Source of the DNA: Quercus robur
Lineage: Eukaryota > Streptophyta > Magnoliopsida > Fagales > Fagaceae
Assembly: GCF_932294415.1 (NCBI RefSeq)
Contig: NC_065541.1
Coordinates: 67,114,695-67,178,694, forward strand
DNA length: 64,000 bases
Direction of reading: 5' to 3'
The notes below the pieces were generated by a model, which searched no databases, was not told the DNA's origin, and worked only from the letters and a program-made list of their open reading frames with translations. This document shows positions 1,258 to 61,714 of the stretch, in pieces. Position 1 is the first letter of the stretch. Every line of letters begins with the position of its first letter. A program made the translations under genes and the position numbers.

Positions 1258-1309
1258 TATGCGTGTTCTCTTCTCCAAAAAGAAAAAAAGAATATGCGTG
1301 TTCTTCTCC
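1258..1309. repeat. Short A-tract insertion between direct repeats
   Basis: The sequence tatgcgtgttctcttctcc (1258-1276) recurs as tatgcgtgttcttctcc (1293-1309), two bases shorter. The two copies are separated by a 16-base A-rich spacer (1277-1292). This resembles the better-defined TSD-flanked A/T-tract insertions elsewhere in the window, but the repeat is imperfect, so membership in that group is tentative. Confidence 0.5.
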
Positions 1310-1323
1310 TTTTTATTTTTTTG

Positions 1324-1388
1324 GCGGTCGAGACTTTTTTTTTTTTTTTTTTCTTTTTTGAGAGTAAACGGCAGAGCGGTCGAGACTT
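1324..1388. repeat. TSD-flanked T-tract micro-insertion
   Basis: The direct repeat gcggtcgagactt occurs at 1324-1336 and 1376-1388. Between them lies a 39-base insert: 16 T, C, 6 T, then GAGAGTAAACGGCAGA. Read on the other strand, the insert ends in ...GTTTACTCTC followed by an A tract, which is the longest non-A stub of this insertion group in the window. The paralogous block at about 4687-4703 has the flanking sequence without the insert. Confidence 0.75.
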
Positions 1389-1629
1389 GAGAATACTAAT
1401 TTCCGAGAGTGCTAGGCAGAAGCTTCATAGTTCATACAGACTTTAATTTATTGTTCTTCTTTGATGCGTAGAGATCAACCTGAAGAAGTCAAGAAACCAT
1501 GTTTTTCACAATCTGACCCCCATGTGCCATGGAATTTTTCAACTAGTGAATAGTTGTTTCTATAAATATCTGACACTGCAGGCTTAGTGCCCCAACACAT
1601 GCAGCTACGTTTAATTAATGAGAGCTCAT

Positions 1630-1673
1630 AAAACCTAGTGTTCTTTTTTTTTTGAAAGGAAAACCTAGTGTTC
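1630..1673. repeat. TSD-flanked T-tract micro-insertion
   Basis: The 14-base repeat aaaacctagtgttc at 1630-1643 and 1660-1673 flanks a 16-base insert of 10 T plus GAAAGG. On the opposite strand this reads CCTTTC followed by A10. Confidence 0.75.
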
Positions 1674-1733
1674 TTGTTTTTTGTAATTCCTCTGCCGTTA
1701 ATATGATTAAACAGCAACCTTGTACCCTCCACA

Positions 1734-1774
<41 letters not shown>

Positions 1775-3484
1775 AAAGAAGTCAGGTTAATGTGTGCCCT
1801 GCACACATTATGTTTTTTAAGTATTTTTGAAAATATTCGAGAATTAAAAAAGTTGTTGTTACTTTTTCAATTCCCAAGAAATTTTTTTCCAAAAATGGAA
1901 ATTAATGTGGCACACATTAGTAAAATCCAAATAGTAAATGTTGTTAACAGTTTTTTATATTTCCCATAAAAGTGGTGTGCGTCAAATTTTTCCTATTATG
2001 GTTTATTAATAATGGGCATCCGCTAACATGATCCCAACAAAAAAAAGCTTATACCCAACCTGACAGACATAGTTTTTATATCTTACACACAAATTCATGA
2101 GTCAAGACAACATATATAGTTAATGCAAGGTTCATGGCACACCTGTACGTATGGCTGTAGGTCCACCAAGAGGACTGCTGACGTGGTCCTCCCTGACCTC
2201 CCAACCAATAAAATGTTATTATTTATGCAAATTTGATATCACTTGATAATTTTTATTTTCTATTCCTTGTGCTGATTAGGGAGCTCACTCACACATTTGT
2301 ATAGATGGTTTTGTCTCATTGGTTAGAAGGACTACATTAGCAGTCCTCCTGGTGGATCTAATAATTTCTCATCATTGCATACATGGGATGTGTTTATTTT
2401 TGGAAAAAGTTAACAAATGACTTAAAGGTATTGACAAAATTTTTTTTAAATTTTTTTTTTTTTTTTTAATGTTTCTCATAGAAGTGATATTAAAACTTTT
2501 TAAAAATGATTAATTAACAAATCATCTATTAATCGGATTCTTTATTTTTTATAATGGATGTAAATTATATGGAAAATTATTCATTATTTTAGGAACAATG
2601 TTTATTCCTCTATTATATTAACGGTGAATTAATTTTACTATAAGTGTAGTAAGATTCATTATGAATTTTGTTAATAGATGTTCTAAATGCATTCGTTTAG
2701 GAAACATTTTTAAAAACCACTATTTGAGCAAAGTTAGATTGCACATTGCGAAGCATTCATTATTATGTAAAATAAGAGCATTAATTTGCTCTAGAAGTAA
2801 TGAATAATTCACTCTAGTTTCTACTACATCACAACTCACAATGATTGATAAGCATAGACTATGGGCTTTGAGAATGAATATAGGAATAAGGGATGATGCT
2901 GGTACAGCCAATTTGGAGTCAATTTCGTGTTTTAATTTTTAATAAATTATAGAAAGCACTCCTCATCATAATCTACAATTCTCATACATATGAGGGGTCA
3001 AACCTCAAACTCTCTTCTTTTTAACAAAGAAAGTACTATTAAACCTCAAGGTTATTGGTAATTTGGAGGGTACTAGGTAACTTTGAATTATCTTGGACAA
3101 CATAATACTTATAAGCTTTAGTGTAATAAGTGGCTTTACCAAAGCTTTATATATAGTATAGGTAATGACATCTTTACGTACATTGCAAGTGTCTAAACAA
3201 GTGAGCCTAATTTGACGCATGCATGATGTTGCCGAGTAATAAGTAATAACGGATAGATATATTAACAAGAAATAAAGTTAAGGGAGCGTATGGTGTGGTC
3301 AAAAGACTTTTTATAACATAAAAGTGATGAAATGAAATTTGGTCAATAACATTCGTTGATCATTACCAATAAAAAAACTGGAAATGCACTACATGAATTC
3401 TATATCATGCATGGCCCTCAGGCCTTATATACCTACCACTAGCTACTTTATCTTTTCCAAAATTCTATCACCATGATGATGCCG

Positions 3485-3492
3485 TATAAATA
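3485..3492 (+). promoter_or_regulatory. TATA box of first peptide gene
   Basis: TATAAATA lies 103 bases before the ATG at 3588. The surrounding bases (catgatgatgccNtataaa, then gtcaaattNgg) are conserved before the second peptide gene, which supports a functional core promoter. Confidence 0.6.
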
Positions 3493-3587
3493 AGTCAAAT
3501 TTGGTATTTGCCTAATATTAATTATAGATCTAGATCCTCCTTTTTAAACTTTGTTTTTACTTAATGTGAGACTTCTTCAATTGTGAA

Positions 3588-3842
3588 ATGGCTAGGAGGG
3601 TGTTGATGAAGGCCATTGCTGTGCTACTTGTTTTGGTTGCTCTGTCTTTGACAATCCAAATAAGGATCACAGCTGCAACAAGGTATAGCAAAGTTTGCAG
3701 TCCAGCTTGCCATTTGGAAGTAAAGGCAACAAGGAAGGCTCTAGATATGGAGACTACTGATCCAGGAGATGATGCTGTGGGTGATGATTATGATTTTTCT
3801 AGACATTATGGTGATGTTCCTAGCCCTGGAGTTGGTCACTGA
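3588..3842 (+). CDS. Small secreted signalling peptide precursor, copy 1
   Basis: This intronless frame encodes 84 aa. A basic start (MARRVLMK) and a hydrophobic stretch at residues 8-24 form a signal peptide. The middle has two cysteines (VCSPAC, near residues 37-41). The acidic C-terminal part reads GDDAVGDDYD and ends PSPGVGH. The last six residues match the end of CEP hormones (...SPGVGH), and GH ends are also typical of PIP/PIPL peptides. The FRPT core of CEPs is absent. DDYD fits the acidic context used by tyrosylprotein sulfotransferase. The likely product is an apoplastic peptide processed from the C-terminus. The start at 3588 is favoured because the second copy starts at the equivalent codon; an internal Met at residue 7 is absent there. 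A partner 2.76 kb downstream is about 70% identical. The exact family is uncertain. Confidence 0.7.
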   Translation: MARRVLMKAIAVLLVLVALSLTIQIRITAATRYSKVCSPACHLEVKATRKALDMETTDPGDDAVGDDYDFSRHYGDVPSPGVGH

Positions 3843-3989
3843 AGTGGGTGCTGGTTTTTCTTTTTCTTGTTTGATTCTCCTTTTTGTACATACTATAGAT
3901 ACATACTTCATCTTTTGGATGATTCCCTTCTTGATTTTGTTCTTCATCCATCAGTTTTATCCTTTGAATATGTGCTTAATATTGTCAAA

Positions 3990-4580
3990 AGTTCAAGGGA
4001 AATCCTGGCTAAAGCAATAGCATCATGCAAGCCATGCCATTGTGTTTTAGGCCAAATAAATAATGTTATGTGTAACATGTTTGTTAACAAATTAATAATA
4101 CCCGCAGTGGATGCAATAAACATGTCAGAGGTATATTAATGGTGGCACGAGGCGTTAACGTCTCGGATTTAGACTTGATGGGTTGATGGGTTCATTAAGA
4201 CTTAAGATGTAAGGGTCAAGTGGGCTTATGAGTGAGCTTTAAGACGGACTTAACTGTGGAAAGATGAGGGAGCAAGTTTTGTGATGAGCTTGGGTTAGTA
4301 CTGTTTGGGCTAATACAAATTAATTAAGCTTAATTGGGTATGATCCTATATATAATATTGTTATGGCTTGAATTACATGCAACAGAACTTTCCTCAGAGA
4401 TATATGGAGACTGATTTTCAAAAGTTTTTTGGGGGAATTCTGGCTAAAGCAATATATATAGCATCATGCCATGCCATTATGCTTTTAGGCCAAATAAATA
4501 ATGTTATGACTTATGCGTAACATGTTGATGTTTGTTAACAAATAATACACGCGGTGGATGCAAAACATGTCTGGGTAATC
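3990..4580. repeat. Duplicated 3' flank, trace of a third peptide-gene unit
   Basis: The sequence downstream of gene 1 (about 3997-4128: ctggctaaagcaata, then gccatgccatt, then aggccaaataaataatgtta, then gtggatgca) occurs again at about 4440-4575 with small indels. It is not seen after the second peptide gene. The second copy therefore looks like the 3' flank of a lost middle unit. The 4140-4430 spacer has no match I could see. Confidence 0.55.
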
Positions 4581-5611
4581 GTGCTTTTGCTGAAACATCA
4601 ATAATTAGTTTACCATAAGTGTTTTTTTTTTTTTTTTGATACCATAGTTCATGTGTTTCATAAGCAGTGAAAATTCTCTCTCTCTGATTTTGAGACTTGA
4701 GAGTACCAATTTCCGAGAGAGAGCATAGTTCATACAGTAGAAAAATTAAATTAAATTTTATTGTTCTTGGTTTGATCGATATGAATAAATCATGTTTTTC
4801 AGTTCTTGCCATGATTTTCACAAGACTCCTTGGCATGTTTTTCAGTTCTTGGTATGAATTTCACAAGACCCCCCTGTGCCATGCAAATTTCCAAGTAGTG
4901 AATAGTAGTTGCATGTTCCTTAGAATATCTGACACTGGCTTAGTTTACCGACACATGAAGACATGAAGCTACTTTTAATAAGCTCAGACCACCTTAATTA
5001 GAGCAAATTAAACCTTGTAACCGTTTTAACAGACATATATAGTTTTTAATTATATCTTACACAGAAACTCATCACCATGGCCACATATATAGTTAATATA
5101 AGGTTCCATGGAATTTCACCTCTATATAAATTATACAATATTTTTAAATTAATTTAAAACCACGTTAAATTAACCATTGCCTCAAAAGTTTATAATATTA
5201 AAATTTAATAAATTTAATCATTTAACTACACAATTCTAAGTTTCTAACAAATATAATAGCTTCATACCTCTCATCCCCTACAACATAACACTAGTTCATG
5301 TACTAGTTTGTAACTGTGAATTATTTTGGACAACATAATATTTTTAAGCTTTTGGTGTAATCAATGCCTTTACCAAAGCTTTCTGTATAGGCAAGGACAT
5401 CTTTTCGTATATTGCAAGTGTCTAAACAAGTAGGCAAATCTCTTTTTAGTGAGCCTAATTTGAATTGGTTTGGCATTTCAAGCAATTTTAGAATTTTTAT
5501 GATTTTTTCTATTTTTCAACTGTCAAAAATCATATGCATGATGTTGCCTAGTAGTAATGGATATACAAACAAGGAAAGGTAATGGAGTCTCTAGGAGAGT
5601 ATATGGTGAAA

Positions 5612-5875
5612 GAATGTTACTTCCATAACATTTTCATAACAATTTTATAACAAATTCTAAGTATCAATTTTTTATTGATTTTAATATGGGTCAATTATTA
5701 AAATTATTTTTTTGTCCACTAGTAGTCATAACAATTTTACAACAAATCCCAAATATTGAGTTTTTATTGATTCTAATCTAGGTCCATTATTGAAATTATT
5801 TTTCTGTCTACTAGTAATTGAATTTGCCACATAAGATTTGTTGTTAAATTGTTATGCACGTAGCATTTCTCATAC
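5612..5875. mobile_element. MITE-like segment with internal 92-bp tandem duplication
   Basis: Ends carry roughly inverted motifs (cataacattttcataacaa at the left and ttgttgttaaattgttatg at the right). Inside, a unit beginning cataacaatttta is repeated at 5635 and 5727, a period of 92 bases, with about 80% identity. The segment is absent at the equivalent place in the first copy of the tandem block, so it was probably inserted after the duplication. Confidence 0.5.
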
Positions 5876-5904
5876 GTGATGTGGTCAAAGACTTTAAAGT
5901 ATAA

Positions 5905-6070
5905 GGGAAAAACTAATGGATGTCCTAAGAGTATTAGTTTTGAGAATTTTTTATTGGGAAAGAAAAAAAATTAAAATTTTTGACTTCTTTTTTTTTATAT
6001 TTTCTATAAAAATAGTGTTAAAACTTTCTTAAAATAATTTATTAATAATTAAGTCATATGTTAACATAAC
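5905..6070. mobile_element. MITE of the gttaac-ended family, copy in peptide block
   Basis: It begins aactaatggatgtcctaag and ends near catatgttaacataacc. Its central part (tattttctataaaaatagtg, then ttaaaactttcttaaaa) resembles copies near 2405, 34535 and 48920. It is absent from the equivalent position upstream of the first peptide gene. Confidence 0.5.
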
Positions 6071-6259
6071 CAAAAACATAAATGCCTCTGAGTTGTCAGT
6101 GACATTCATTGCTCATTACCAAAAAATTAATAAACAAACTTCAAATGCATTTACTCCTTCATGAATTTTATGTCATGGCCCTCCAGGCCTTACTTTTACA
6201 AGCCTAATAAAACTACTTTATTTTTTTCAAAAGTTAATGCTATCACCATGATGATGCCC

Positions 6260-6267
6260 TATATAAA
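6260..6267 (+). promoter_or_regulatory. TATA box of second peptide gene
   Basis: TATATAAA lies 87 bases before the ATG at 6347, within the same conserved context (catgatgatgcc, then gtcaaattgg) as the TATA box of the first peptide gene. Confidence 0.6.
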
Positions 6268-6346
6268 GAAGTCAAATTGGCATTTTCTGTTCAAGACCAC
6301 CTTTTAAACTTTGTTTTACTAAATCTGAGACTAGTTAGTTTGTGAA

Positions 6347-6595
6347 ATGTCTAGGTGGGCGTTGAAGGCCATTGCTGTGCTACTTGTGTTGGTTATTGTG
6401 TCTTTGACAATCCAAACAACTACAGCAACAGCGAGATACAGCAAAGTTTGTAGTAGTCCAGAGTGCCATTTGGAAGTATGGGCAACAAGGAAGCCTCTAA
6501 CCATGGAGGCTGGTCCTGGAGATGATGCTGTGGGTGATGATTATGATGTTTATGGAAAGTATGAAAGTGCCCCTAGCCCTGGAGTTGGTCACTGA
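6347..6595 (+). CDS. Small secreted signalling peptide precursor, copy 2
   Basis: This intronless frame encodes 82 aa and is the tandem paralogue of the gene at 3588. It has a signal peptide (MSRWALK, then a hydrophobic run at about 8-23), the same Cys pair with one extra residue (VCSSPEC), and an acidic tail (PGDDAVGDDYD) ending APSPGVGH. The two proteins agree best in the signal peptide, in YSKVC...CHLEV.ATRK, in DDAVGDDYD and in the last six residues. They differ at the FSRHYGDV/VYGKYESA stretch just before the end. That pattern suggests the 15-20 residue C-terminus is the mature ligand and has diverged between copies. It is probably secreted and acts through a receptor kinase, which is inference from peptide-hormone families in general. 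Confidence 0.7.
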   Translation: MSRWALKAIAVLLVLVIVSLTIQTTTATARYSKVCSSPECHLEVWATRKPLTMEAGPGDDAVGDDYDVYGKYESAPSPGVGH

Positions 6596-7526
6596 AGTGA
6601 GTGTTTTTCTTCTTCGTCTTTTCATTTTTTTTAACATGGTACAAGTGTTTCCAAAGCCATGAAAATTGTACCATTATAAACTATATTGTGATTTCTCTAT
6701 AACATCAGTTTACTGAAAGTTTATACCATTATAATGGTCATACTTCAAGCCACTGACACGCTTCACAGACAACCTATTTTGGGCATCCCAACTCTCGCGC
6801 AAATGAGACTGCTGAAAAGATGTGGAATCCATCTTCATGGCATCACAGGCGTTCATTTTACAAAATTCAGTTTATTTCAGCTTTAATCACTCATTTTCTA
6901 TTGTCCTCCTAATTTGAGATTGGCCACATCAAAATACTAATAGTTTAGTAGCTGGCTCATTCTATTCTAATGCTCAAGCAGGAAATTGGTATATAGATTA
7001 CACAACGCGGCACTACTTTAATAATAATACTAGTAATAAGTAAAGGAACATGATCACTGGCTTCAAAGTCAAAAACAATTGGACCAAAACTTGTTTGTCC
7101 CAGTTGAGCCCACTTAGTTGTTGCCCTCCGGTAAGTTCTCACTTGTTAGCATAGTCTAGAGAGGCCTAATTATGTGAGTCTGATGTAAATCCACTAATGG
7201 GCCTTTGAAGGTTGCTCTATTTAATCATAGACCCAGTATTAAATCCACTAGTATCTTAAATTGGAAGGACGTATTAAGCCGCACTCACACTAATGTGTAT
7301 AAATTAGCGTAAGATGTTAATTTTACACATTTTGAGCTCAAAATTTACCCACATAAGGCAGTTTAAAAGTATGGGAATCTACATTTTTTTTTTACAAAGT
7401 TTTAACCTATGATGTTCGTTCCTAATAATAGTTTTTTATTATCAGATCAAGACATTAATCGATTTTTTGTATAAATATATATAGTTACTATTCACTTGCA
7501 AAGCCAATTTTTAGTACTTCTTTACT

Positions 7527-7633
<107 letters not shown>

Positions 7634-9595: not shown

Positions 9596-9722
9596 TGGTT
9601 TGTTTAGATTGAGGAAGAAAGAGAAGAGTAGAGTAGAATAAAATAGATTTAACACAAAATTAGTTTATTTTTAATCAACTCTACTATACTTCCCTTCACT
9701 CTCCCTCCATCCAAACAGGCCA
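9596..9722. mobile_element. Tourist-like MITE with TAA duplication
   Basis: Terminal inverted repeats start tggtttgtttagattgagg at the left and end ccatccaaacaggcca at the right. The similarity continues for about 45 bases inward. Both ends abut TAA (9593-9595 and 9723-9725), the target duplication of PIF/Harbinger-type elements. Confidence 0.7.
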
Positions 9723-10105: not shown

Positions 10106-10169
10106 ACTATATGAAATGATGTTTCTCAAAAAAAAAAAAAAAAAAAAAAAACACACTATATGATATGAT
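10106..10169. repeat. TSD-flanked A-tract micro-insertion
   Basis: Repeat actatatgaaatgat (10106-10120) and actatatgatatgat (10155-10169), matching at 14 of 15 bases, flank a 34-base insert: GTTTCTC, 24 A, CAC. Confidence 0.8.
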
Positions 10170-10685: not shown

Positions 10686-10722
<37 letters not shown>

Positions 10723-12993: not shown

Positions 12994-15193
12994 TCCAATT
13001 AATAACTATCATAATTCATATTTAATATTTAATAATTCATATAAAAATAAAATCAAAATAAATGTTCATTAATAATTGTCATAATTACCAAATTTTATGT
13101 TATAAAAAGATTTTGACTTTGAATTTTAATTTTTTTTTTTATTTTTTTAGAGATTTGCTTACTAGTATACATATAAAATGGTTTAATTTACCTTTAGTAC
13201 TTTTTTAACTGGATATATATTTTTATTTTAAATATACAATAATAAGTGGTAGTGGGTTTTAATCTACACATTTTATTTAATTAGTGAATGATGGGACTGT
13301 CTTTCGTTAAAATAAAACTATATACCTTTGTAAAAAGTATAGGAGGTAAGCAACCCCATATAAAAAATGAATATAACCATAATTACGTTACTTTGGTATT
13401 AGATTGTTATTTGAGGAAAAAGATTTTCTTGGGTACCAACTTGGCCTGTTAATTTTTGTATGATGGAGTTCTTTTTCTCCTTTTTCTGGATTGACTTGGT
13501 TGGTGCTTCAAAATGTAAGGTGGAAATGGAAGGTATAGTAGTACAGAATTTGCTATAATAATGTGCTTGGGATTCTTCCAGATAAATGTGAAAAATTGAA
13601 CGTCACTCCTCACTAGCCACTATATATCTAAATATCTATCTTCCAGCTCTGATCGAAATGATGAAAAAAATATGATAATGGAGTGGAGCCGAAAAGCTAA
13701 AAAGGACAAAGTGGGTCAGAAAGGGTAGGCCACTGGCAGAGGCAGTGGAAGGGGCAGGGCTTAATAAGCATAGAGAGATTTTTATGCATGTTGTGATAAA
13801 GGTTTTAGGAAAAGCTGGTGCTCAGTACATTTTGGTATGGAAACATGTTCAGCTCTCATGGCCTTTTGTGATTCACATGGTTTTGTCTGTAAGATAGTCC
13901 TACTCTTTTTTATTTTTTATGGACCCAATCTTTTATTTTTATTTTTTATTTTTTTATGGACCTAATCTTTTTTTTGGAAACGTTTATGGACCTAATCTTA
14001 TTCTTCATTAATCACGCCATTTCAGACAAAATAAGCTTTGGTAAGTTTTCAAAGAAATATATGATTATGCTCTCTTTTAGACTTTAGCACGTTTCATGAA
14101 GCTGTTTTTTTTCCCACCTTTAACCACTCCTTTTAAGTTACTTAAATCTCATTTTTTCTTTTCTTTTTTTTTTTCTATTTCTTATCCACCCAAGAAGCTT
14201 TAGAGGAAAGAGAATGAAGATTGGTGGGTACGTGGAAAGTGATGTATCATCTTTCATTCACAGAATGCTGCCTAATAAAACTATTAAATTAGGAAAAGTT
14301 GTAAACTTGTTCATGTGTGTGTGCGTGTGAGAGAGAGAGAGAGAGAGACTGAGAGAGAGAGGGTGGGTATGATAAAAGATAAACGGTCATTGGAACCAGC
14401 TTTATTTTCGAGGGCACTAGTTGAGTTGTAGTTGGTGTGATTGTTTTGCTCATGTAACTGTCGTTGAATCACGTGAATGTGCCTTTTCATTGTCATCAAT
14501 TAAAATAGAACCGTTCGGTTTATTTTCCGTGTGAGAACTGAAACTCTTCTGTATATATGCATATAAAACTGTTCATTAGAGTTTTCCTGTTTTTTTAGCG
14601 TCTTTGTCCTTTATATGAGTTAAAACTTTGGACATGTTACAAACTTTCGTGCTGGACTAGTCGTCTCGATGAAGGTGAGGTATTAGGTACTTTGTTATTT
14701 TCTCTTTTCATCAACCAAAAAAAAAGGTAAAATAAAAAACAAAACTGCCGGGCAAATTAATGAGGGCCCTTCTACATTTATTTTGCTCTGTCTAAATAAT
14801 TCAGTGTAGTTGAGCTTCAATCATTTGGAAATTTACAATTTCACCACTAGTTGTAGGGGTAACTCCTTGAGTTATCTTGTTGCTTTTCCTGGGTTCTAGT
14901 GAATGGTGAATATTGTGCTCCATTTTCTATGATAAAGACCCGCGTGTTATAAGAAGAATGGATGTCATGTGGGTTCATTGAAAAGTGGGTGAATGTGTCA
15001 TTCTATCTCCTTTTTGCACATTTAAAGTGGAGAGCTTTATGAGTGTCATTGGAAGTGTCATCTTGAAATTCCTCAATTTTGTTTTCTAGAAAAAAAGTTG
15101 ATTCTATTTGAGAGTGCCATTTCAGCTTCTATTTTTTAAGTGCAGATCTGCAGGTGACTTTGCTCAACATCATAACTTGAGGGGTGAAAAAAA
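12729..15193. other. Gene-free region upstream of the potassium transporter
   Basis: There is no coding frame with recognisable similarity. It holds TAA microsatellites (near 12960-12990), a GA tract (14331-14362) and repeated tttatggaccYaatc motifs around 13915-13997. The last 1-2 kb probably include the promoter and 5' untranslated exon(s) of the transporter, but I could not fix a transcription start. Confidence 0.5.
13953..13997. repeat. TSD-flanked T-tract micro-insertion
   Basis: The 15-base repeat tttatggacctaatc at 13953-13967 and 13983-13997 flanks a 15-base insert of 8 T plus GGAAACG, which on the other strand is CGTTTCC with A8. A related tttatggacccaatc lies just upstream (ending 13930), so local tandem duplication is an alternative for this case. 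Confidence 0.65.
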
Positions 15194-19672: not shown

Positions 19673-22145
19673 GCCTCATATGTAGCTAGCTTTCTTTTGT
19701 TTGCCAATGTCACATACAGATAAACCTGGAAGAGGTGTGAATGTAAGGTAATACAGTGATTGTGCGGATTAATGAGGATTTTAGAAATATTAACTCTACT
19801 TTCATAGCTAGCTTTCTGGTTTCATAGATGATTCAATTGCCATCACATTCATTGAACTCTATGGAAAAATGAAATTGCTACTATAAAATTTTAAAAATTC
19901 TATTAAAAGCTGTCAAGAAATTCTTGGATAAATTCTTGATGATGAAAGTTGAAGGCCGACTAGCAATTCTTGTAAATAAGATTTCCAACTCCAAACTGCT
20001 TTTGGCTATGGAATGTAGATGGCATCCTTTTTAAAGCCAATTTATGTAAAAATTTCTTAAATTTTTACCTTTTTTTTTTGTCCTAGTTATAGTGGTAGTT
20101 TTATCCAATATATATTCTAAGTGAAATAAACCAATGAATTTAGGCTATTCCAAACGAACTTAAAGGTAGTTGATGTAGAATCTAGCGGTTTGACGGAAAT
20201 AATTTTGATCGTCAGAAAAAAAAATAAAAATCAAGTATTTAATAGCGTTTCTAAAAATGCTATGAAAACATATTTTTTACTACTTTTCCTACATTTTTTC
20301 ATCTCCCAGGTATATTTAAAGTTTTTTTTTTTTTTAATTTAGATTAAAAAAAATTGTGAGTGGCGACTGGTGGTGGCGGCAGCAATGGTTGGTGACCGGA
20401 GATTGGAGACGTTAGTGGGAGCGATGGAGGGGTGGCTAACAGTGACGGGTGGGGGTGGAAAAGTTGACAAAGTGGTGAAGCATTTTGGAAAGTTTGATTT
20501 ATTTTTCCTTGCATATAAGAGAGTTACACTAGTTTTGTTGCTTTTATTTACAGGGTGATGAAACTCATATTGGACTGGTGGGGAAACCATGAATTTCCTG
20601 GGGGAAGCATCACGTGAGAGTTATAGGATTATTACGTATTGTCACCTTTTGCTTAAGAACCTAGTGCTCTATCATGCTCTTGTCATGTACAGATGTTTGC
20701 ATTATTTAAGAGTTATAGGATAATTACGTATTTAGAAGAAGAACTCTAGGCATTTACGACTTAGATACACCAAAACACTTGATTTTCCACTAGTCAAAAT
20801 CTTTCCTTTGAATGTGATGGATCATATTATATAGATTTTATATTTTTAAATTTTAATCATTCTTCTAAGTTTTGGACCCTTTGGAGTCCTAATTTGGACA
20901 TAAAATAATAAAACTCATAGACTAACTTAAAACTCAAGTAAACACTCCCTAGACACTTTGAAGCTTCTAGAGAACTGGACCGAATTTTATGTTAGTCTTG
21001 TTTGAATTAAAAGTGGAATGCTGGCCCAACAAAACAACATTCATTGTTGTCAAAACTGAAAGCTACACATTAAAGACCATCAAAAAGCTTTTCTTATGAT
21101 TACATCAAGTAATGGAAAGGAAGTTCCTCAAAAAAAAAAAAAAAAAAAAAAAAAAGTAATGGAAAGGATTTCAATGAGATTAGAAATTTGAGAAACATTT
21201 TGAGTTAGGAGTTTGAGAGATCTAGCCAGAATATGTTGTCTAAGGTCCTAGAAGGGAATGTTTGTTTCTAGAATTTTTTTGTTTTGTTTTTTTAAATAGT
21301 TTTGCTCGGATGTATACTCATAGACACTTGTCACTGCAAATAAAGATACTTTGGCTCTTCTATTATTTATAAACTTGTTTTAAGGTTTAAACTGAATTTC
21401 ACCTTTTTTATTGGGTAAAATGCAAAACAAGCCATTTGGGATTTGGTTTTTTGGAAAAATAAACGAAACTTTCCAAAATGACCTTGTTCATAAATCATAG
21501 TCAGAAGGAAAATAAAAGGACCGCAAATGAAAATGTAAAACGTTTTCCACTAAAAGTGTCTTTATTTTTGTGATCAACCCGATTAACCAACAATTGATCG
21601 TACTAAACACGAAAAAGTTCATAAACTGAATTGAATAGGAACGAATTTTGTCCTCTCCCCTTCTTTTTGATTCTTTTTAATACCAAACTAAAAGAAATGA
21701 AAGGAAGACAATAATACAGTATAAATTTAGGACAAAATTGAGTCACAATTACTTTGATTCAATCACTTGGCTGTAATAATAAAACCCAAAGTTCATAAAC
21801 TAATTTGGGTTTTTTTTTATTATTTTATTATTTATTCTGGATTGGTCATTATAGCCACATGACTTTTAGTCCAGGATATTTCTGTCATCAACCGATGACT
21901 GACCCAAGGGCAAAACCAAATGCTCCTCTCAAACTATAATAGTCTGGTAGAGCACCACGTAGTCTTGTACTAGCCACCAGATTTGCTGAGTGGCGGCCAT
22001 GCTATATTGAACACTACGTGGCCGTAATTTAATGGTCCAAACAAGCAAAACGTAATTATCCCTACACAAACATTTAAGGAGCAGGTAGCATAGCTGCGTA
22101 GAGAACATAGTACAACAGCTTCTGCTAAGGGTAGTAAACATAAAC
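19673..22145. other. Gene-free region after the transporter
   Basis: The first part is the transporter's 3' untranslated region. The rest is AT-rich DNA with a G-rich stretch at about 20355-20470 (tggtggcggcagcaatgg and similar) that encodes nothing I recognise, and a TSD-flanked A-tract insertion at 21107-21168. Two opposed ACGTG-type motifs (about 21955 and 22015) lie upstream of the next gene and could be light- or ABA-responsive sites. Confidence 0.5.
21107..21168. repeat. TSD-flanked A-tract micro-insertion
   Basis: The 15-base repeat aagtaatggaaagga at 21107-21121 and 21154-21168 flanks an insert of AGTTCCTC followed by about 24 A. Confidence 0.8.
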
Positions 22146-23538: not shown

Positions 23539-24038
23539 CAGGGCCGGCTCAAGGCCTAGGCAAGTTAGGCCTAGGCCTAAGGCCCCACTAAAAAACAAAA
23601 TTTTTCTTGAAAAAAAAGGCCCCATTTTTTATAGTTAAAGGCCCAAATTTTTATAAAATTATATATATTTTCTAAAGGTTGTACATTTTTTTTATTAGTG
23701 ATGTACAAATTTTACTATTAGCTTACAAATTGCCATGTTATTAATCACAAAAAATGTAATATAAACATTCATTAGTTAAATTGATGAAATTCATCAATGA
23801 GAAACAATATCACATTATATTTTGAACATTTTATAGTACTTTTAATTAGCGCATTTTTCTTTTTCATTTTTATTAAGACTCTCAAAGTACGAGACAACCT
23901 TAACTCAATTGAAACCCTAAAATATTTCAAAAAGATGTTGCAAATGTGTTAAATCATCAATTATAGATTAATCTCCCCTAATAGTTTGAGACTTTGATTT
24001 TTGTAAACTAATATCCTACAAAACCATACACCAAATAA

Positions 24039-24410: not shown

Positions 24411-25542
24411 GTTAATTAATTGTGATGGAAAGTGGAAACTATAGTTTACTACCACCTACATATTTTAGATTGAATTCAAAATTGTAATTGAGTTGTTAAT
24501 TTTTATTCTCTTTCCTCTTTCCTCTTTTCTATGAAATATGTTTGATAGTTTACATATAAATTGCATGAACATACGTTTATTTATGTTTTTAAAAATGTCC
24601 ACTAACTATTTGGGTAAATAACTGATGATACCAAAATTGTCAGTTGGATCACTCGTCCAATCCGAAGCATTAGACGATTTTGTAAGACCTGCAAGATGAA
24701 AGAGAGATAAATCGAAGAAACCACTGGGTTGTGCCCGGTGGGGGAGCCTCCAATACTTAAGTTAGTATCGGCCCATATATTATGTATATAGGTAGTGTTT
24801 TGTAGTATTTTGTACTAGTTTTTGACATACCTTAGCTAGTGAGACAAATTGTCCCTTTTATAGGTGACTTAGGTAGCTGTTGTACATAAATTAGGGTGAT
24901 TATTACCTTGATTGTAACGTTCTTTGTCTTGATGAGAGTTTAAGACCTTTGATAGTCATTATTGAATGTGTTGAGTGGTTCTCTTTGATGGCCTGCTAAT
25001 GATGCAAGGTTGTCCATATTAATGGATGACCTTAATGATTTTTCTAGACTCATCAATAACAATGAAAAAAGAACATTTAATTGAAGGTAGACTCGCTAAA
25101 GAAGGAGAACGTCAGCTAAGCAGTTATTTAATTTTCAAATGTAAACTTCTATTAAGCAAACAAATTCAACCCTATAATAATATAATATTTCTTATAAAAT
25201 TTATGTAAAGAAAAAAAACCTATAGTTGTCTAGAGACTAATATGCACGCATTTACAAATAAAAAAAACTCGCGCAAAGCACGGGTCAATCACTAGTATTT
25301 AGAAAAGGACGGAACCAGATGAAGAGCACACAAATTGCATTGCCAACTACTCCCAAGACTTGAATAATTTCAGCTGCACAAGCTTTAAACCTGCCCGGTT
25401 ATATATCCTTGTCCATATATATATATATGGTTTAATTAAGCTATTGTTGCAGATTTAAGTATAATGCTTCAACTTTCTCAACAAAAAAAAAAAAAAAAAA
25501 AATAGTATAATGCTTCAAAGTCATACGACAATCCTTCCAATA
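24411..25542. other. Gene-free interval
   Basis: No recognisable coding sequence. It contains a TSD-flanked A-tract insertion at 25458-25518 and the short TATA-rich repeat tatatatatatatgg near 25417-25430, which could have served the broken glucanase gene that follows. Confidence 0.5.
25458..25518. repeat. TSD-flanked A-tract micro-insertion
   Basis: A perfect 15-base repeat, agtataatgcttcaa, at 25458-25472 and 25504-25518 flanks CTTTCTCAAC, 20 A and T. It lies just upstream of the glucanase pseudogene start codon. Confidence 0.85.
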
Positions 25543-26635: not shown

Positions 26636-27237
26636 GGTCCCAAGTAAAAAAAAGACCCCAAATTTTAACCAATAAGGTTATTTATAATCAATAAATAAAA
26701 TGATATTTTTTTTTTCAAATGAAAAACAAATAAAAAATAGAGAAAAATGCAATGTCCACAATATTTTTTACAACACTTTTACAATTATACTAAGTAGTAG
26801 GTTGTTACAACCTGTTATTGATGGTAAAAAAATAATTATAGTGATATTTTCAAAGAAAGAGAGAGAGAAAAAAAAAACTTCAAAAATCTAGGATTTGTTG
26901 TAAAAAAATATTGTGAATGTTGTACTTCTAAAAAAATAAAAATAATAATAAGAGTTTAATTAGCAAATTTTTACTAGTTCTCATCTAAGTCTACCACTAA
27001 CACCATTTTTTTACTTACTATTATCAATTTACCATATCAACCTTATCAAAAAAAAAAAAAAAAATTTACCATATCAACAAGTATGGAAAATTTTGTCAAA
27101 TTTTTTCTGTTTATAAAATTTCTAAAAAAAGAAAAATCTCTATGTAGTTTTTGTTAATTAGTAGTAATTTTGCATATAAAACAAGATAATCAATTTTCGC
27201 CTTAGCCCCCTAAATATATTAAGCCGCGGTCCACTCT
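26636..27237. mobile_element. Decayed hAT-related insertion with nested MITE
   Basis: It interrupts the glucanase pseudogene. The left edge (ttaaggtcccaagtaaaaaa, then agaccccaa) and the right edge (ttttcgccttagccccctaa, then ttaagccgcgg) resemble the subterminal sequences of the hAT-like element at 23539-24402 (ctaaggccccactaaaaaac and ttttcgccttaggcccctaa). Outermost termini and a target duplication are not clear, so this copy is older or truncated. A smaller MITE lies inside at about 26756-26917, with near-inverted ends cacaatattttttacaaca and tgttgtaaaaaaatattgtg. Confidence 0.6.
27026..27078. repeat. TSD-flanked A-tract micro-insertion
   Basis: A perfect 16-base repeat, aatttaccatatcaac, at 27026-27041 and 27063-27078 flanks CTTATC plus 15 A. 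It lies within the foreign DNA that interrupts the glucanase pseudogene, so it is younger than that insertion. Confidence 0.85.
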
Positions 27238-49746: not shown

Positions 49747-49787
49747 GTATGATGCTATTTTTTTTTGAGAAACTAGTAAGATGCTAT
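49747..49787. repeat. TSD-flanked T-tract micro-insertion
   Basis: Repeats gtatgatgctat (49747-49758) and gtaagatgctat (49776-49787), matching at 11 of 12, flank 8 T plus GAGAAACTA. On the other strand this is TAGTTTCTC with A8. Confidence 0.72.
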
Positions 49788-51017
49788 ATGAAATAAAATA
49801 ATTAAGAATTTTTTTTGAGAATGCACTTATTAGGTGGACCATGTTTATAATGTCTATTTGAAATTATCCAATGCTCAATTAAATTCATTCATGTGATTCC
49901 ATTGATCGAATGAACCATATTGTCAAATTTAATTAGTTGTATTATTCAATACGAGCATGTGATTGAATCCAATTGAAGAACTTAAAAGTACAACACTCAA
50001 TGGATAGTATAAGTTTTGTTCTTATATATTTTGAAAATATATATTTTTATTTTTCTTTCATTAAAATATTTTTTATTTACATTCTTGAATGGTTAAATCC
50101 AATAATGGAGTCTGTGTTGTACGAAAATATTGTTGATGTAAATGGAATATAATTTCAAAGGTAAAATCAAAATTTTGAAATTTCAAAATATAAAATATAA
50201 ATATCTATAAACTTCATGAGTATGTTTTGCAATTTAACCTAATTATGTTTATGCTACTGGGGGCCTGCAGGCCGTGTTATAATCGTGCTTCGTGGGCTTC
50301 ACAGTTCTAAAACATGCTTGAACGGTTAAACCCAACAACAACGAGTGTGGTATTGATATATTTGATGCCCAACTACGCTGTACGCAATTACCTCTACCAT
50401 GTGGGCAGTGGCTGCACGCAACTCAGAACCATCTTTATTGAGTTGAGAGTCGGCTGTGTCTGTGTTTTGGGTGTGTTTTGTTTCTTGTATTTGTTTCTAA
50501 AGTGTTCCCCTCATATTAAGTTATATCCTTCACCTAACAAAGGTATTAGATTTATTGTGAAGGTAGCATAGTAGGTGAAAACATTAAACGTGGGTGATGG
50601 GTCTGATGGAACTGGTATGGAGATAGTCAATCTAGATGGACAGGGGGAAATTTCAGTGAATTTGAGGGGTCCATTGTTTTAGCAGAGTGAATTGGGACTA
50701 GACAAAATGTGGACCTATCAACACGCTCTTGGTTGGCCATGGAGGGAGTGTCTGCCTATGCCACATGATTGATTTCCATGTCCCAATCTTTTCTTCACAC
50801 GCCACACAGGGCTAAACTAAACCGACTCACACTCACAGACATATCTCAATAGGATACTGTCAATTCATTGACAGGAACTCCATAACCGCTGCCATAGATT
50901 TAGCTCTTTGTGTACCTAAATTGACAAGGCGGCCTAAGCTTACCTTCTTTCCTTTTCGTTGTCCTCATCGGATCATTAAGTCAATAAAGAGTAAGAGTGG
51001 TTGATCACTATTACTAT

Positions 51018-51061
51018 TACTTTTACTTTTTTTTTTTTTTTTTTTTGAGGAGTACTTTTAC
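51018..51061. repeat. TSD-flanked T-tract micro-insertion
   Basis: Repeat tacttttac at 51018-51026 and 51053-51061 flanks 20 T plus GAGGAG, which on the other strand is CTCCTC with A20. The duplication is shorter than in the other cases and lies in low-complexity sequence. Confidence 0.6.
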
Positions 51062-54577: not shown

Positions 54578-54609
<32 letters not shown>

Positions 54610-55973: not shown

Positions 55974-56235
55974 GTAAGTTGATATCTAACGCCGAGCAAA
56001 ATAAAAAATGGTTTCTCATAGTAATTCTTTGTAAACGAGTGGTTTATTTATTATAATTTTTTTTGGTTAAGACATATTGATATTGCCATGTCAGAGTAGT
56101 ATAGGTGCTACATCAAGCAATATATTTAAGACCTTTCAAACTTGAGCTTTCATCTTTAGTTTGAGGGTAGATATTAGCAATATTATTGTTCAAGTAACTC
56201 AAATTAATTGTAGGTTCATATACTTGTAAAACAAG

Positions 56236-58368
56236 TGTTGAGGGTCATTTGTGAGAATCCAAGTAGAAAGAAGAAAAACCCAACAACAAGGGCAGCAAAG
56301 AATTGGCAAGAAGATGGCAAAACCATTAAGGCCCAAGTGGTAGGAATAATGGATCGCAGGCCCATGAAATAAACAAATAGGTCTTGAAGAGGCAAGTGGG
56401 TTTAAAGAAGCCCAGAAAGAGAGAAATAGCATACCCATGGGCAATATATGATGTAGAAAAGTGAGAAAGTGTCGCCGCAAATCCAAAGTAATGCAAACAA
56501 AGAAAGTAAGGGGTTTATAACAGGCCCATGAACCCCAAGGATGAGAATAAGATAATTGGACCAGGAAAGCCCAATGAAGTTAGTAAAAACCTATGGGAAT
56601 GCAAAGTTAGTAAAAGGGTCAAAGAAGCCCAAAGAAAGCAGGTGGGCCAAGGATGCCCAAGAAAAAGACAAAAGGGACACAGGAGCCCATAAGTAGGAAA
56701 ACCAATGGTCATACCAAGCCACTAGGGGAAAAAGTAAACGGCTGGCCTAAAGAGGCCCAGTAGGATTGAGTCATTACAGTAGGAATAACAGAATAATATG
56801 GTAGGAAATTAGAGAAATCAAGAAGTAGGCCAAAGAAATATAAGGTCCATCATCAAATAAGGCCCAGCTCCTAAGAGGAGCGGGAAATCGAAAAGTAACC
56901 CACATAAAAGGTCAAAGAAAACGGACGGCAGGCTACGTAGGCAAGCTTCCAGACCATGGCAGACAAATGGGTAGTAGACAAATTTTGGACACATATGAAA
57001 GGAAGGCACGAGCAAGGCCCAGGCACTACCAGCCTGTACCCAGCCAATACAGAGCATGGAAAGGTCGGGGGTCAAAAATTCAGAGGGCGTGGTTTGGTGG
57101 TGGGGAGAGGGGAAAAATCTATTTTTGAGGTTCTGGCTCAGGCTTTTTCGGGGAAGTGTCCTGCTTGGATGACTTACTACCCAAAAGAAGTAAACTGAAT
57201 TGGAACCACTAGGTGCATGCCATGAGGGATAGGGAGAAAGAAAGAACTCAGACCGTAGCAGGAAAGGGTGTCACAGCAGACAAGCAAACAAAATACCTTT
57301 TTTTGTCTGGTGATGGGGAGGTGGCACACAAACGGAACAGTGATGGTCGGCCAGTACATCTAGACCAGACAAATGAGGTTAAGGGCTAAAACAGTAAAAT
57401 CCGGTCATGGCAAGCACTATAAAAAGAGGATCTTGCAGTGAACAGAAAAACAGAGCAACAACGGGAACCTTAACTAAAAAATAGAAATTTGAAAAGAGAA
57501 ACCCAGTAATAGAAAAGAAACAAGTGGGAGGGAAAGAAAGAAAACAACCCGAAAGAAAATAAAGTGAGAATTAGAACGGCAAGCATGCACCGGTAGATTG
57601 ATTTCCTCTCTCCCTCACGAAATCCTGCTCTCTGTGAAAACCACAAGGAGCCTCTGTGCATAAACCATTCAGGTCTGTTTCTCTTAGGGCAGTTAATCTC
57701 CACGGCAGGACTTTTCCTGAGAGATTAATTGCGTTGAGAAGGAACGTTCTTTCCTCTCCGGTTTTGCTCTTACGGACCAGATTTTAGTTGATTTCTTCAT
57801 CTTCTGATTAACCCATACATATTAATATTTGTTCACTTTTGTTTTGTTCTTTTCCTTCTATAGAAGTGATTATTATTGCTATAATTATGTTTGAGGGTTG
57901 TTTGGTTATTTCCCACTGAGTGGCTAGATATTTTATTTATTTTATTATTATTATGTCTGTCTGTTACAACTTGTCTGAAACAGCTCTGCCTGCCACAAGC
58001 ACGTTCCTGGCAAACCTAGCTTAGTTTGCGCACAAGCCGGACCAACTTGAGTTGTAGCTAGACCGATCCCAACTCCCTTATCCAAAAAACTTGAGCCTAG
58101 TGCCGTAGGAAGCAGCCCAACACCACTAGCACAGCCTACCACTTCACAACAAGTAACTTAATATTGGATTAGTCTAGGGTTAGTCAATTATTATCTAATA
58201 TATAAACTCTACATTGGGTTCATTGTAAACAATTGCTTAATATCCATATGTAGTCATTCAAGGGCGTTCATACCGTGAACATAAGCCGTTAGGCCAAATT
58301 GCGTAAACTTTCATTTGTTCTCTTTTTTGTCTTCCACACATCATTTAATCATTACACACAACCACACA
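56236..58368. mobile_element. Possible long solo LTR
   Basis: A purine-rich, GC-richer block begins TGTTGAGGGTC and ends near CCACACA. It has a TATA motif (ctataaaaagagg) at about 57418, followed by a pyrimidine-rich, transcript-like segment. Flanks acaag and acaat agree at 4 of 5. No protein domain, primer-binding site or second LTR is evident. Boundaries are tentative. Confidence 0.35.
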
Positions 58369-58839
58369 ACAATTTTAACTTTTATATATATATATATATA
58401 TATATATAGGAAATGAGAAAATTGTTAAATAGATAAAATTTGGTTTTCTAGTACAAAAGAATCAGCTTTTGGACTCCACAAAGATATGAAATCATGTCAA
58501 GTTTCTACTTTCTATCACAAATTGGAAGTGTTGCATCTTTTAAACTGAAAATATTAAGAAGACCATTGACCCTTGAGCAAAATTGGATATCTTGACAATA
58601 CAAATCAAAGCAGCTGTAGACTTCATTTCAATTGGGCAGGTAGTAATTGTTGCCCTAAAAGCAAATTATAGTTTTAAACACACTTCTCCATGTGCCAACC
58701 CTCTGGTCAATTATTATTCAAAGTGGTTTGCATTGCCAAGTGCCAACTGAGGAGTGAGAACGGTTCAAAGGTTTCGATTCCCCTTTTGTTGTAAGTTAAA
58801 AGGTAAAGTAGAGTTATTGGGAATAAAGAAAAGCATATA

Positions 58840-59030
58840 GGGTCTGTTTGGATACCGCTTATTTGACTGAAATTGAATACTTATAGCTAAAAGTACTGTA
58901 GATAAAGGTAAAAGTTAGTTAAAATAGTACCTATGAATAATATCAAAAAGTACAATGAAGCCATAAATAATAACAAAAATAAGCTGAATAGTAAAATAAT
59001 TTATAATTTTAATTGGTTCCAAACGAACAC
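58840..59030. mobile_element. Tourist-like MITE
   Basis: The left end ggtctgtttggatacc and right end ggttccaaacgaacac are inverted relatives. The interior matches the MITE at 9755-9956 (tgtagataaaggtaaaagtt, then ccataaataataacaaaa, then aatagtaaaataa). Confidence 0.7.
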
Positions 59031-61714
59031 ATAATCTCTCTTTTTGCTTTTCAAAACTTTGAACTTCTATTTCTATATTCTCTTGTATAGAATCCGTGGG
59101 CATCTTAGCCACCTTGTGCATGACAATTGATAGTTGTCACGCTGACACCATTCTGAAGTGAACTATTTTTCATTCTCCATCATCACACATGGCAAATGTT
59201 ACAAAATTTCTCCAGTGAGAGTTTCAGTTCTGTTAATGTTGATGCAGAAAGAGTCGAGCACTTAAAACTGGATTTTGTCTAATGTTGCATGCCTAAATCT
59301 TGGAGAGAGCAAGTTCGAGGTGGGATTTGGATCAGTTAATTAAGGAAGTCAGAAAGAGAAATTATTCTAATTTCCACTTAGAAGTCCCAAGGATATCTTG
59401 CTTTATCCTTTGTGTCAATATAGCATACAAACTTTGTTAATTATAGAAGAAATTAAAGAAAGGAAAAGCTGATGGAAAAGGAAGCACTTCTCAATTAGCC
59501 CAGGAAGGAGTTAAACTTATTCTTCCTAACTTTCCTTTTAAACCCTGTTTGATTTGATAGCCATTTGAGTAGAAGCGTAAAGACACACACAGAAGAATCA
59601 TCATTTTTGTGCTTGAGGAATGGAATCCTAAACTCTTGTTTTTTTCAAAATTACTTTGTGGGACTACTATCGTGCTAGGCCCACATCACAATCAAAGAAA
59701 TTTAATTTATTCATGCACTACCTCTAGACGATGTCTCGAGCAATGAGGATTCCTGTAGTGCATTGAGGATATTTTTATTAAAAGCATCATTCATCATTGG
59801 ACCCCTCTCCCCCACTTCTCCTTTTGTACCCTGATCGACTAATATCAGATTTTTTCTTGATTCGTAAGATTGCGGCTAAGAATTTTATCTTGGGGTTTCC
59901 TATGGAACAACCTGACGATGATGACTAACATCAATATGTTTCAAATCCCTTTTAACCTTTACATGTATTGTCCACTATATCTATACATTTTTGTGCCACT
60001 AGGTACTGTTATCTTATGAGACTCATAGCAACTACATCGTACAAGGACACACACATACCACTTTGGTACAAAGTTTGTCAAGGATTTGCGCCCAATTGAC
60101 ATTGGACAGCTACAGACTAAGTACTCTAATTGTAGGTTGTAACAGTTACATCAGATGGGAGCTAAGCTTTAATCGAATATTTCCAGTGGCCATAGCCAGT
60201 GGAACATATTTCCTTGTTTAAATTTCAATGGGTAAAGAATAGGACATGACACTCGCCTATGGTTATCATTAGATCGGTGGTCTAAATCATATGATTGGAA
60301 TTCTTTCTTTGTATAATTCGATTTCCGCTGAAAATATTTCTTGATTTTTTTTTTTTAAATTTCTGTTTTGATTTGGTCATGGATTTTGGTGGGCTAATGT
60401 GTTATTAGAGGTAGCAAAGATATGCGAAGTGGGGCTACGCTGGGTTGGGCCACCATAATTAAACATATATGACATGCCTTGTCAAGCAGCCTATAACCTC
60501 CAACGTTTTTTTTTTTTTGAGAAATATAACCTCCAACGTGGTTGAGCTTGGACCATATACCAATTATAGTTTTAATGGGCTATGTTTCCAGTCTAACAAC
60601 TTTCTTTATGGCTGGGCCAATACAATTTTATTTTTGAGTCTCTGAGAGAAGCAAATGGCCCCACCACAGACCACAAAAAACTTTTTTTCCCTCTAAATAA
60701 TTAAGAATAAGGAAAGCAGTAGATGAAGGATTTACTATTTTAAGTAATGGGTCCACCCCAAATGAGAGGGGTGTATGCTTTATGCAACCATTACCTATGA
60801 GGATTTGGCTTGGGTCCAATGCCTTGGAGCAATTGGACCTTAGTAATGATCACATAACAGACTTACTTAACAAAAAATTTGTAAGATGAAATAAGGTTCT
60901 ACTTTTAGCCTAGTCTAGTGCAAGACCTAATTGAAAAAGATAAATTGCTTATTTTTCTCTCTTTTTTAGCAAAAAAAACTTAAATATTACATAATTCCCC
61001 TATAATTTGAGAAGACCTCCAAATTAACTTGGACTTTACTAGTTTTTAATCAAAATTCTAAATTGCTTCAATCAGTGAGCCATATGAACCCAAAATAAAT
61101 AAATAAATAAATAAATAAATAAACCTTACATAAATGGTATTATATTTTATGCTTGTGCCAAGTGACTCAACATAAGTGCTACATATCATACAATGTATTT
61201 TTGCACATAAGATTCTTAATTTGATACTTAATGCTAAACTTAGAACATTTCTAGATATTTAAAGAACTATCATATGAACGTCAACTCATTAAGGGGTATT
61301 TTAGTTGGGGGGGAATCATACAGTGATGGCAACTTCACTAAACTGTGCTTGTTTATTAGGGGTTTTGTAAGCCATTTCATAAGGTTTTTTAATGTCAAAA
61401 AACCATCTGTGATTCACATGAAGTTTTAAATCCGAATATGCCCTAAGAGAAAAACACATCTGTCATGTGCCTCATCTTAAGCTAGCTTCGAGGGACACCA
61501 AGCTCACAAGTGCTACTATAGAGGCATTAGCTGCAGAAAGTGCAGAGGCAGTAATGAGTCATTGGTCAGTTAGAAATAGCTGTTAGAAATTAGTTACTGG
61601 TAAATGTTCATTTAGCCATTCCAAGTTACCAATCCTAGTGCAGGCAATGCAACAGCCTCTCAATAAAGGCTGAGATTCATACCAGTGAAATTTTGGGATT
61701 TGTTTTGAAACTAA
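59031..61714. other. Gene-free interval
   Basis: No protein recognised on either strand. It includes a TSD-flanked T-tract insertion at 60492-60538, an AAAT microsatellite near 61096-61122 and AT-rich unique-looking DNA. Confidence 0.5.
60492..60538. repeat. TSD-flanked T-tract micro-insertion
   Basis: A perfect 14-base repeat, tataacctccaacg, at 60492-60505 and 60525-60538 flanks 13 T plus GAGAAA, which on the other strand is TTTCTC with A13. Confidence 0.85.

What the first reader, a model, noticed from the sequence alone, without database searches (positions are those of the whole stretch)
1258..60538. A dozen TSD-flanked micro-insertions of one A-tailed stub
Seen directly: very short A/T-tract inserts sit between direct repeats at 1258, 1324, 1630, 10106, 13953, 21107, 25458, 27026, 40729, 49747, 51018 and 60492. 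Repeat lengths are 9-17 bases and six or more are perfect over 12 bases. Oriented with A at the 3' side, the non-A stubs are similar: GTTTCTC, TTTCTC, TAGTTTCTC, GTTTACTCTC, GTTTCTCC, CGTTTCC, AGTTCCTC, CTCCTC, CTTTCTC, CCTTTC, CTTATC. Both orientations occur. Known: LINE machinery makes target duplications of this size and 3' A tails. Inference: one source RNA (SINE or LINE) ending about TTTCTC-A(n) is retrotransposed with almost complete 5' truncation, at roughly one copy per 5 kb. I know of no named plant family of this kind.
Basis: partly seen in the sequence, partly recalled or inferred. Interest (0 to 1): 0.72.

Follow-up and report, generated by a model that had tools for sequence, protein, structure and literature searches.

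The report
Seven-base LINE retrotransposon micro-insertions
This plant genome is peppered with tiny insertions, about seven bases plus a run of A between duplicated target bases, that look like reverse-transcription events of LINE-type jumping genes which stopped at a nearly fixed point just inside the element.

Summary
All 12 sites have the stated anatomy. In the window 9 of 83 A-runs have flanking repeats around a 3-12 base stub; swapped flanks give 0.017. The 786 Mb genome has 3,086 GTTTCTC+A12 sites against 59 for the backwards pattern. One window insertion and one elsewhere are missing from related repeat copies.

Target duplications, mostly 13-17 bp and starting Y|AA, plus A-tails point to L1-type target-primed reverse transcription. 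The source is not one RNA. Of 48 GTTTCTC+A12 sites read, 5 are 3' ends of different LINE ORF2s, 10 belong to a SINE-like repeat, 20 are micro-insertions with clear duplications, 13 are unresolved. Twenty-two of 33 stubs found without the motif match no 3' end I hold.

The surprise is stub length: of 38 such stubs up to 20 nt, 27 are 5-10 nt and 3 are 0-4 nt; constant drop-off predicts 11.8 and 17.9. A tRNA-like SINE is often copied to its 5' end. I favour abortive reverse transcription near the LINE's 3'-terminal motif; that cause is inferred.

The parts
1258..1304 (+). Micro-insertion: TSD TATGCGTGTTCT, stub CTTCTCC, interrupted A-tail
1324..1388 (-). Micro-insertion: TSD AAGTCTCGACCGC, stub TCTGCCGTTTACTCTC, A6-G-A(n)
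1630..1675 (-). Micro-insertion: TSD AAGAACACTAGGTTTT (16, perfect), stub CCTTTC, A(n)
10106..10169 (+). Micro-insertion: TSD ACTATATGA(A/T)ATGAT (14 of 15), stub GTTTCTC, A24
13953..13999 (-). Micro-insertion: TSD AAGATTAGGTCCATAAA (17, perfect), stub CGTTTCC, A(n)
21107..21168 (+). Micro-insertion: TSD AAGTAATGGAAAGGA (15, perfect), stub AGTTCCTC, A24-26
25458..25518 (+). Micro-insertion: TSD AGTATAATGCTTCAA (15, perfect), stub CTTTCTC, tail AAC-A20
27026..27078 (+). Micro-insertion: TSD AATTTACCATATCAAC (16, perfect), stub CTTATC, A15-17; empty site seen in a related repeat copy in L024
40729..40801 (-). Micro-insertion: TSD AGATAGGAGATTT (13), stub GTTTCTCC, long interrupted A-tail
49747..49787 (-). 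Micro-insertion: TSD ATAGCATC(T/A)TAC (11 of 12), stub TAGTTTCTC, A8-9
51018..51061 (-). Probable micro-insertion: 9-bp low-complexity TSD GTAAAAGTA, stub CTCCTC, A20
60492..60539 (-). Micro-insertion: TSD ACGTTGGAGGTTATA (15, perfect), stub TTTCTC, A12-13

Best explanation
Shown: these are insertions, not slippage or chance repeats. Strongly supported: they were made by L1-type target-primed reverse transcription (TPRT). An endonuclease nick at Y|AA lets the target's T-rich 3' end prime on a poly(A) tail, the enzyme copies the tail and 5-10 nt of the RNA body, and joining duplicates about 15 bp of target. Shown for the commonest class: the RNAs ending in GTTTCTC-A(n) include several LINEs and a roughly 155-nt SINE-like repeat, so GTTTCTC is a shared 3'-terminal motif rather than the end of one RNA. 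Inferred (about 45% against other causes of the stop): the reverse transcriptase holds this terminal segment when it starts, and often fails to pass from initiation to elongation. Synthesis then ends near the end of the motif and the short cDNA is joined to the upper strand at once, giving TSD-GTTTCTC-A(n)-TSD instead of a longer copy. Stubs of other sequence, two thirds of those found without the motif, are read as the same event on RNAs with other 3' ends; this part is not shown.
For: TSD excess over swapped flanks. GTTTCTC+A12 3,086 against 59, TAGTTTCTC+A8 344 against 5. Of 48 GTTTCTC+A12 sites, 20 have TSD score 8 or more with stub 12 nt or less, 0.33 expected from swapped flanks. TSD start A 77%, A 57%, preceded by C 43% or T 39%; 16 bp the commonest TSD length (56 insertions). 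Two empty sites in related repeat copies: window 27026 against L024, L010 against L048. Five of 48 sites lie downstream of LINE RNase H (RVT_3) coding ends, all five over the Pfam cut-off. An EN+RT LINE ORF2 with an upstream DUF4283/CCHC ORF is present in L047. Stub length 3:27:8 for 0-4, 5-10, 11-20 nt against 17.9:11.8:8.4 for constant drop-off; 0 of 200,000 simulations as extreme. Stub length does not correlate with A-length (r 0.03, 32 insertions), which fits a stop counted from the A/body junction. Extra stub bases match particular LINE ends: GGTTTCTC = L078/L058, CTGTTTCTC = L077. A tRNA-like SINE (s1) in the same DNA shows 5' ends at model position 1 in 5 of 10 matches, so the machinery can copy further.
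Against: 22 of 33 stubs found without the motif match 4 bases or fewer of any 3' end I hold; their sources are unknown. Three LINE 3' ends found without using the motif end in TTTGTCTC, TTTTCTAT and TTCTTCTAT, not GTTTCTC. Only 1 of 9 RVT_3 matches in the listed part of C1 (from the 150 scored of 16,810 candidates) is followed by GTTTCTC+A12 (positions compared by eye). No contact between enzyme and motif was or could be shown. A-tails change by slippage, which weakens the correlation argument. Thirteen of the 48 sites were unresolved. The exact boundary is blurred by chance matches between target and template.
Confidence: 0.72

Rival explanations
1. The reverse transcriptase does not stop early: its templates are already short. 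5'-to-3' decay of polyadenylated RNA leaves the poly(A) tail plus a few protected bases (under poly(A)-binding protein or the enzyme itself), and these remnants are copied to their 5' ends.
For: Stub length is narrow and similar across different stub sequences. Stubs are pyrimidine-rich and diverse, and two thirds match no LINE or SINE end held, as many RNA ends would give. The tRNA-like SINE is often copied to its 5' end. Human L1 uses a bare 30-nt poly(A) RNA efficiently in vitro (PMC7617806, passages).
Against: C precedes the tail in 29 of 32 and TTCTC in 9 of 32, which looks like a limited set of sources rather than mRNAs at large. GTTTCTC as the commonest single stub needs those RNAs to be frequent among the fragments. 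No RNA data.
Confidence: 0.27
2. A stem-loop just upstream of the terminal motif in LINE RNA blocks the enzyme, so that the stub is the single-stranded flank between stem and tail, as in the stringent 3' ends described for one grass L1 lineage.
For: Obvious stems end next to the stub in L058, L077, L078 and L012. Ohshima describes a hairpin with a conserved 3' flank in a monocot L1 lineage and its SINEs (PMC3747384, passages).
Against: Of 11 LINE or SINE-like ends folded (plus one tRNA-like SINE) only those four look convincing; z-scores against base-composition shuffles are mostly near zero (best -2.34, L058). The last 45 nt of the SINE-like repeat, which shares the motif, have none (z +1.45); its whole body does fold better than shuffles (z -2.91), but the main stem is internal.
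Confidence: 0.15
3. Chance: A/T tracts in an AT-rich genome happen to lie between short direct repeats, or slippage created them.
For: The window is AT-rich with many A-runs; a few calls (23579, 34239, 51018) may be chance.
Against: 9 observed against 0.017 expected in the window, replicated in other loci; motif 3,086 against 59; empty sites.
Confidence: 0.01
4. Ordinary 5' truncation: the short inserts are just the tail of a broad length distribution of LINE and SINE insertions.
For: 5' truncation is a known feature of LINEs; premature second-strand synthesis is the published picture (PMC7617806 figure legend), and NHEJ factors shorten LINE inserts (PMC2666801 passages).
Against: Constant drop-off predicts most stubs at 0-4 nt; 3 of 38 observed. 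Only two matches to the SINE-like body, 33 and 19 nt, lie outside the selected centres of the 329 kb, against 33 short insertions of all stub kinds.
Confidence: 0.15

Closest known systems
5'-truncated L1-clade LINE insertions (plants and mammals)
   Same: TSDs of mostly 13-17 bp, A-tail, Y|AA target, source ORF2 with RNase H and an EN+RT LINE in the same genome
   Different: Truncation leaves 5-10 nt in a separate narrow class rather than hundreds of bases; recalled plus PMC3747384, which gives 100-1,000 bp for most LINE members (passage)
Stringent 3'-end L1/SINE pairs (grass L1 lineage 'monocot 1a' and maize SINEs)
   Same: A short 3'-terminal motif before poly(A), shared between LINEs and a SINE-like repeat
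   Different: Motif GTTTCTC here, CGAG there (PMC3747384 passage); a conserved hairpin not shown here
A-tail microsatellites born from retroposition
   Same: Each event seeds a mononucleotide repeat
   Different: Here almost nothing but the tail is inserted; comparison recalled, no source read

Membership tests
L1-clade LINE retrotransposition product | Target-site duplication flanking the insert | tested here: met
L1-clade LINE retrotransposition product | 3' poly(A) tail in constant orientation to the stub | tested here: met
L1-clade LINE retrotransposition product | Endonuclease target preference (Y|AA on the A-strand) | tested here: met
   56 insertions; no background correction made
L1-clade LINE retrotransposition product | Longer elements with LINE coding sequence and the same 3' end | tested here: met
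   5 of 48 sites; clade assigned by domain order and recall, no tree built
L1-clade LINE retrotransposition product | Empty target site | tested here: met
   two related repeat copies; a third candidate there (L047 against L039) did not support it; no sister species available
L1-clade LINE retrotransposition product | Every stub class traced to a LINE or SINE 3' end | tested here: inconclusive
   GTTTCTC class yes; 22 of 33 stubs match 4 bases or fewer of any end held
Stringent-type 3' end (hairpin plus terminal motif) | Conserved hairpin next to the motif | tested here: inconclusive
   4 of 11 ends, weak z-scores; no covariation test made
tRNA-derived SINE (for the ~155-nt SINE-like source) | tRNA-like head or known RNA family | tested here: inconclusive
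   ARAGORN and Rfam found nothing in L062, L080, L056 (L066 by ARAGORN only); ARAGORN and Rfam also found nothing in L048 and L010, which hold the box-B-bearing s1 SINE, so the test is weak

The most novel reading that the evidence does not exclude
A plant LINE group whose reverse transcriptase has a true abortive phase: it grips a 3'-terminal heptamer shared by several LINEs and a SINE-like repeat, and a very common genomic product is an abort fragment of about 7 nt plus the tail, leaving of the order of ten thousand or more A-tract insertions (rough extrapolation) that repeat annotation cannot see.
Probability: 0.33. Interest if true: 0.75.

Novelty: new variant of a known kind. Interest (0 to 1): 0.6.

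Why it matters
Why LINE copies are truncated is an old open question, usually studied with inserts too long and varied to show a mechanism. A class that stops at a nearly fixed distance from the tail gives a countable, sequence-level readout of where target-primed reverse transcription fails. It is also a large, overlooked source of poly(A) microsatellites and of presence/absence markers with perfect target duplications, since such inserts are shorter than the seeds used in repeat annotation (inference).

Tried and rejected
Chance or slippage: rejected by swapped-flank controls. A single source RNA: rejected by several LINE ends plus a SINE-like end. Hairpin roadblock as a general cause: not supported by folding 12 ends; the SINE-like body folds better than shuffles (z -2.91) but its main stem is internal. 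A generic mRNA-3'-end source: considered because stubs are pyrimidine-rich and two thirds match no end held; the C before the tail (29 of 32) seems too uniform, but it is not excluded. Non-templated stubs: rejected for GTTTCTC because it recurs thousands of times. Genome-wide counts for other stubs, and for how many GTTTCTC sites carry a body, could not be had: the search machine did not answer. Rfam and tRNA scans of the window gave nothing. Ten literature searches (searches returned no paper) listed no paper that I recognised as being on such insertions; apart from passages of three papers I saw only listings and abstract starts, so absence from print is not established.
Full report
What was checked. 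All 12 sites were read directly. A scan for an A-run of 7 or more with a repeated 9-mer on both sides found 11 of the 12 plus two low-quality extras, at 23579 and 34239; the twelfth, 49747, was found by a scan allowing mismatches. Nine of the 12 repeats are perfect over 12-17 bp. Swapping right flanks among A-runs gives almost none: 0.017 against 9 observed with stubs of 3-12 nt in the window, and 0.45 against 18 in the flanks of the first 38 loci.

Genome-wide. The window lies in a 785.7 Mb genome held in 42 contigs. GTTTCTC followed by A12 occurs 3,086 times (both strands), the pattern read backwards 59 times; TAGTTTCTC plus A8 344 against 5. I read 48 of the first 53 listed places (L001-L008, L050-L089); the other five were held through other calls (L009, L010, L011, L012, and one inside L044) and are not in these counts. 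Of the 48, 20 have a TSD of score 8 or more with a stub of at most 12 nt, against 0.33 expected from swapped flanks. Ten carry 40 nt or more of a SINE-like body. Five follow LINE RNase H coding ends. Thirteen are unresolved (L050, L052, L055, L057, L061, L065, L068, L070, L072, L079, L081, L082, L087): nine of them gave no TSD, and L082 looks like the SINE-like end but was not counted.

Anatomy. Over 56 insertions (including ones chosen by motif) TSDs run 9-22 bp, 37 of 56 at 13-17 with 16 the commonest length; they begin with A in 77% and A again in 57%, preceded by C or T in 82%. Median A-tail is 13-14. The stub is pyrimidine-rich: in 32 insertions found without the motif, C at -1 in 29 and no G at -1 to -4; in 419 other A-runs, C at -1 in 108 and G in 13-29%.

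Empty sites. A related repeat copy in L024 lacks exactly 37 bases at window 27026, the stub, tail and one TSD copy. L010 carries a GTTTCTC-A22 insertion inside a tRNA-like SINE whose copy in L048 has the unbroken sequence. A third candidate, L047 against L039, lacked only 15 bases and neither the stub nor the tail, so it does not support an insertion.

Sources. L058, L067, L076, L077 and L078 read as the C-terminal part of LINE RNase H (RVT_3 by Pfam, all five over the cut-off), a stop codon, a 3' UTR of roughly 20-50 nt and then GTTTCTC-A(n). Two loci chosen by the TAGTTTCTC pattern, L012 and L019, look the same. LINE ends met without using the motif finish in TTTGTCTC, TTTTCTAT and TTCTTCTAT (L048 twice, L083), so the motif varies. 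A LINE with a DUF4283/CCHC ORF and an EN+RT ORF2 lies in L047, without its 3' part. The SINE-like source, about 155 nt, occurs singly and in tandem (L062 three units); ARAGORN and Rfam found nothing in it. Outside the selected centres of the 329 kb scanned without the motif, its body matched only twice, over 33 and 19 nt. Of 33 insertions found without the motif (TSD score 10 or more, stub up to 12 nt), 11 have stubs matching 5 or more bases of a held LINE, SINE-like or SINE end, and 22 match 4 or fewer. Exact GTTTCTC is the commonest single stub, 5 of 33.

Stub length. In 328.7 kb scanned without using the motif (window; flanks of L001-L038 with their centres dropped; L039-L049; L094-L097), 488 A-runs gave 45 with TSD score 10 or more; 38 have stubs up to 20 nt: 3 at 0-4, 27 at 5-10, 8 at 11-20. 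Constant drop-off with the same mean predicts 17.9, 11.8 and 8.4; none of 200,000 simulations was as extreme. The flanks lie near GTTTCTC sites and L044 happens to contain a listed place, so this sample is not fully random; five mid-contig stretches gave few insertions. Stub and A-length are uncorrelated (r 0.03), as expected if the stop is counted from the A/body junction, though A-tails slip. Among 21 insertions ending in TTTCTC that were not chosen for an upstream base, stubs are 6-10 nt; that search required TTTCTC, so it could not show stubs cut shorter inside the motif.

Contrast. The tRNA-like SINE s1 has 10 matches in the same 329 kb; five begin at its first base, though one of those (L019) is cut by the locus end and another (L006) stops short of the 3' end. 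No stub of its 3' end (TTGTAT) is among the 69 insertions listed. So very short copies are not the only product of the machinery in this genome, if both are made by the same enzyme, which is not shown.

Mechanism. TPRT by an L1-type enzyme is strongly supported. Why it stops near 7 nt is open. I favour abortive initiation at a 3'-terminal motif; decay fragments as templates are the main rival; a hairpin block is weaker. Published work says premature second-strand synthesis would give 5' truncation (figure legend of PMC7617806), that NHEJ factors limit LINE insert length in chicken cells (PMC2666801, passages), and that plant L1s range from stringent to relaxed 3'-end recognition (PMC3747384, passages).

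Limits. Any total copy number is a rough extrapolation (3,086 sites, 20 of 48 clear micro-insertions, and 4 of 33 motif-free insertions having GTTTCTC+A12 give about ten thousand).

Noticed in passing
L062 with L090 (C1 near 4.75 Mb); also L066/L091, L080: The SINE-like source forms short head-to-tail arrays (three units in L062) with short A-tracts between units.
   Followed up: partly
L012, about 1280-1510, minus strand: Several A-tailed LINE-end units sit in series at one target (repeated TTAAGAGTATTG), as if the same site was hit or expanded repeatedly.
   Followed up: no
L013, L016, L034: Two or three GTTTCTC-A sites within 3 kb of each other, against about 4 per Mb genome-wide: clustering of insertions.
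   Followed up: no
L048 9295-9441 minus; L030, L010, L007, L018, L006 and others: A 147-nt tRNA-like SINE with a box-B-like GGTTCAAGTC and poly(A) tail, ending TTGTAT; ARAGORN does not call a tRNA in L048, L010 or L030.
   Followed up: partly
L047 657-4423 plus: LINE with an open DUF4283/CCHC ORF and an EN+RT ORF2 piece, lacking its 3' part, just upstream of a gene resembling a splicing factor subunit (recalled).
   Followed up: partly
C1:14072214-14072582 (+): RVT_3 match followed about 107 bases downstream by GTTTCTC-A12 (14072689), another likely LINE 3' end with the motif, seen by position only.
   Followed up: no
window about 49809-49826, minus strand: A second tail, GTGCATTCTC-A8, without a detected TSD, lies close to the 49747 insertion; the CATTCTC stub recurs with perfect TSDs in L029 and L095.
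   Followed up: partly
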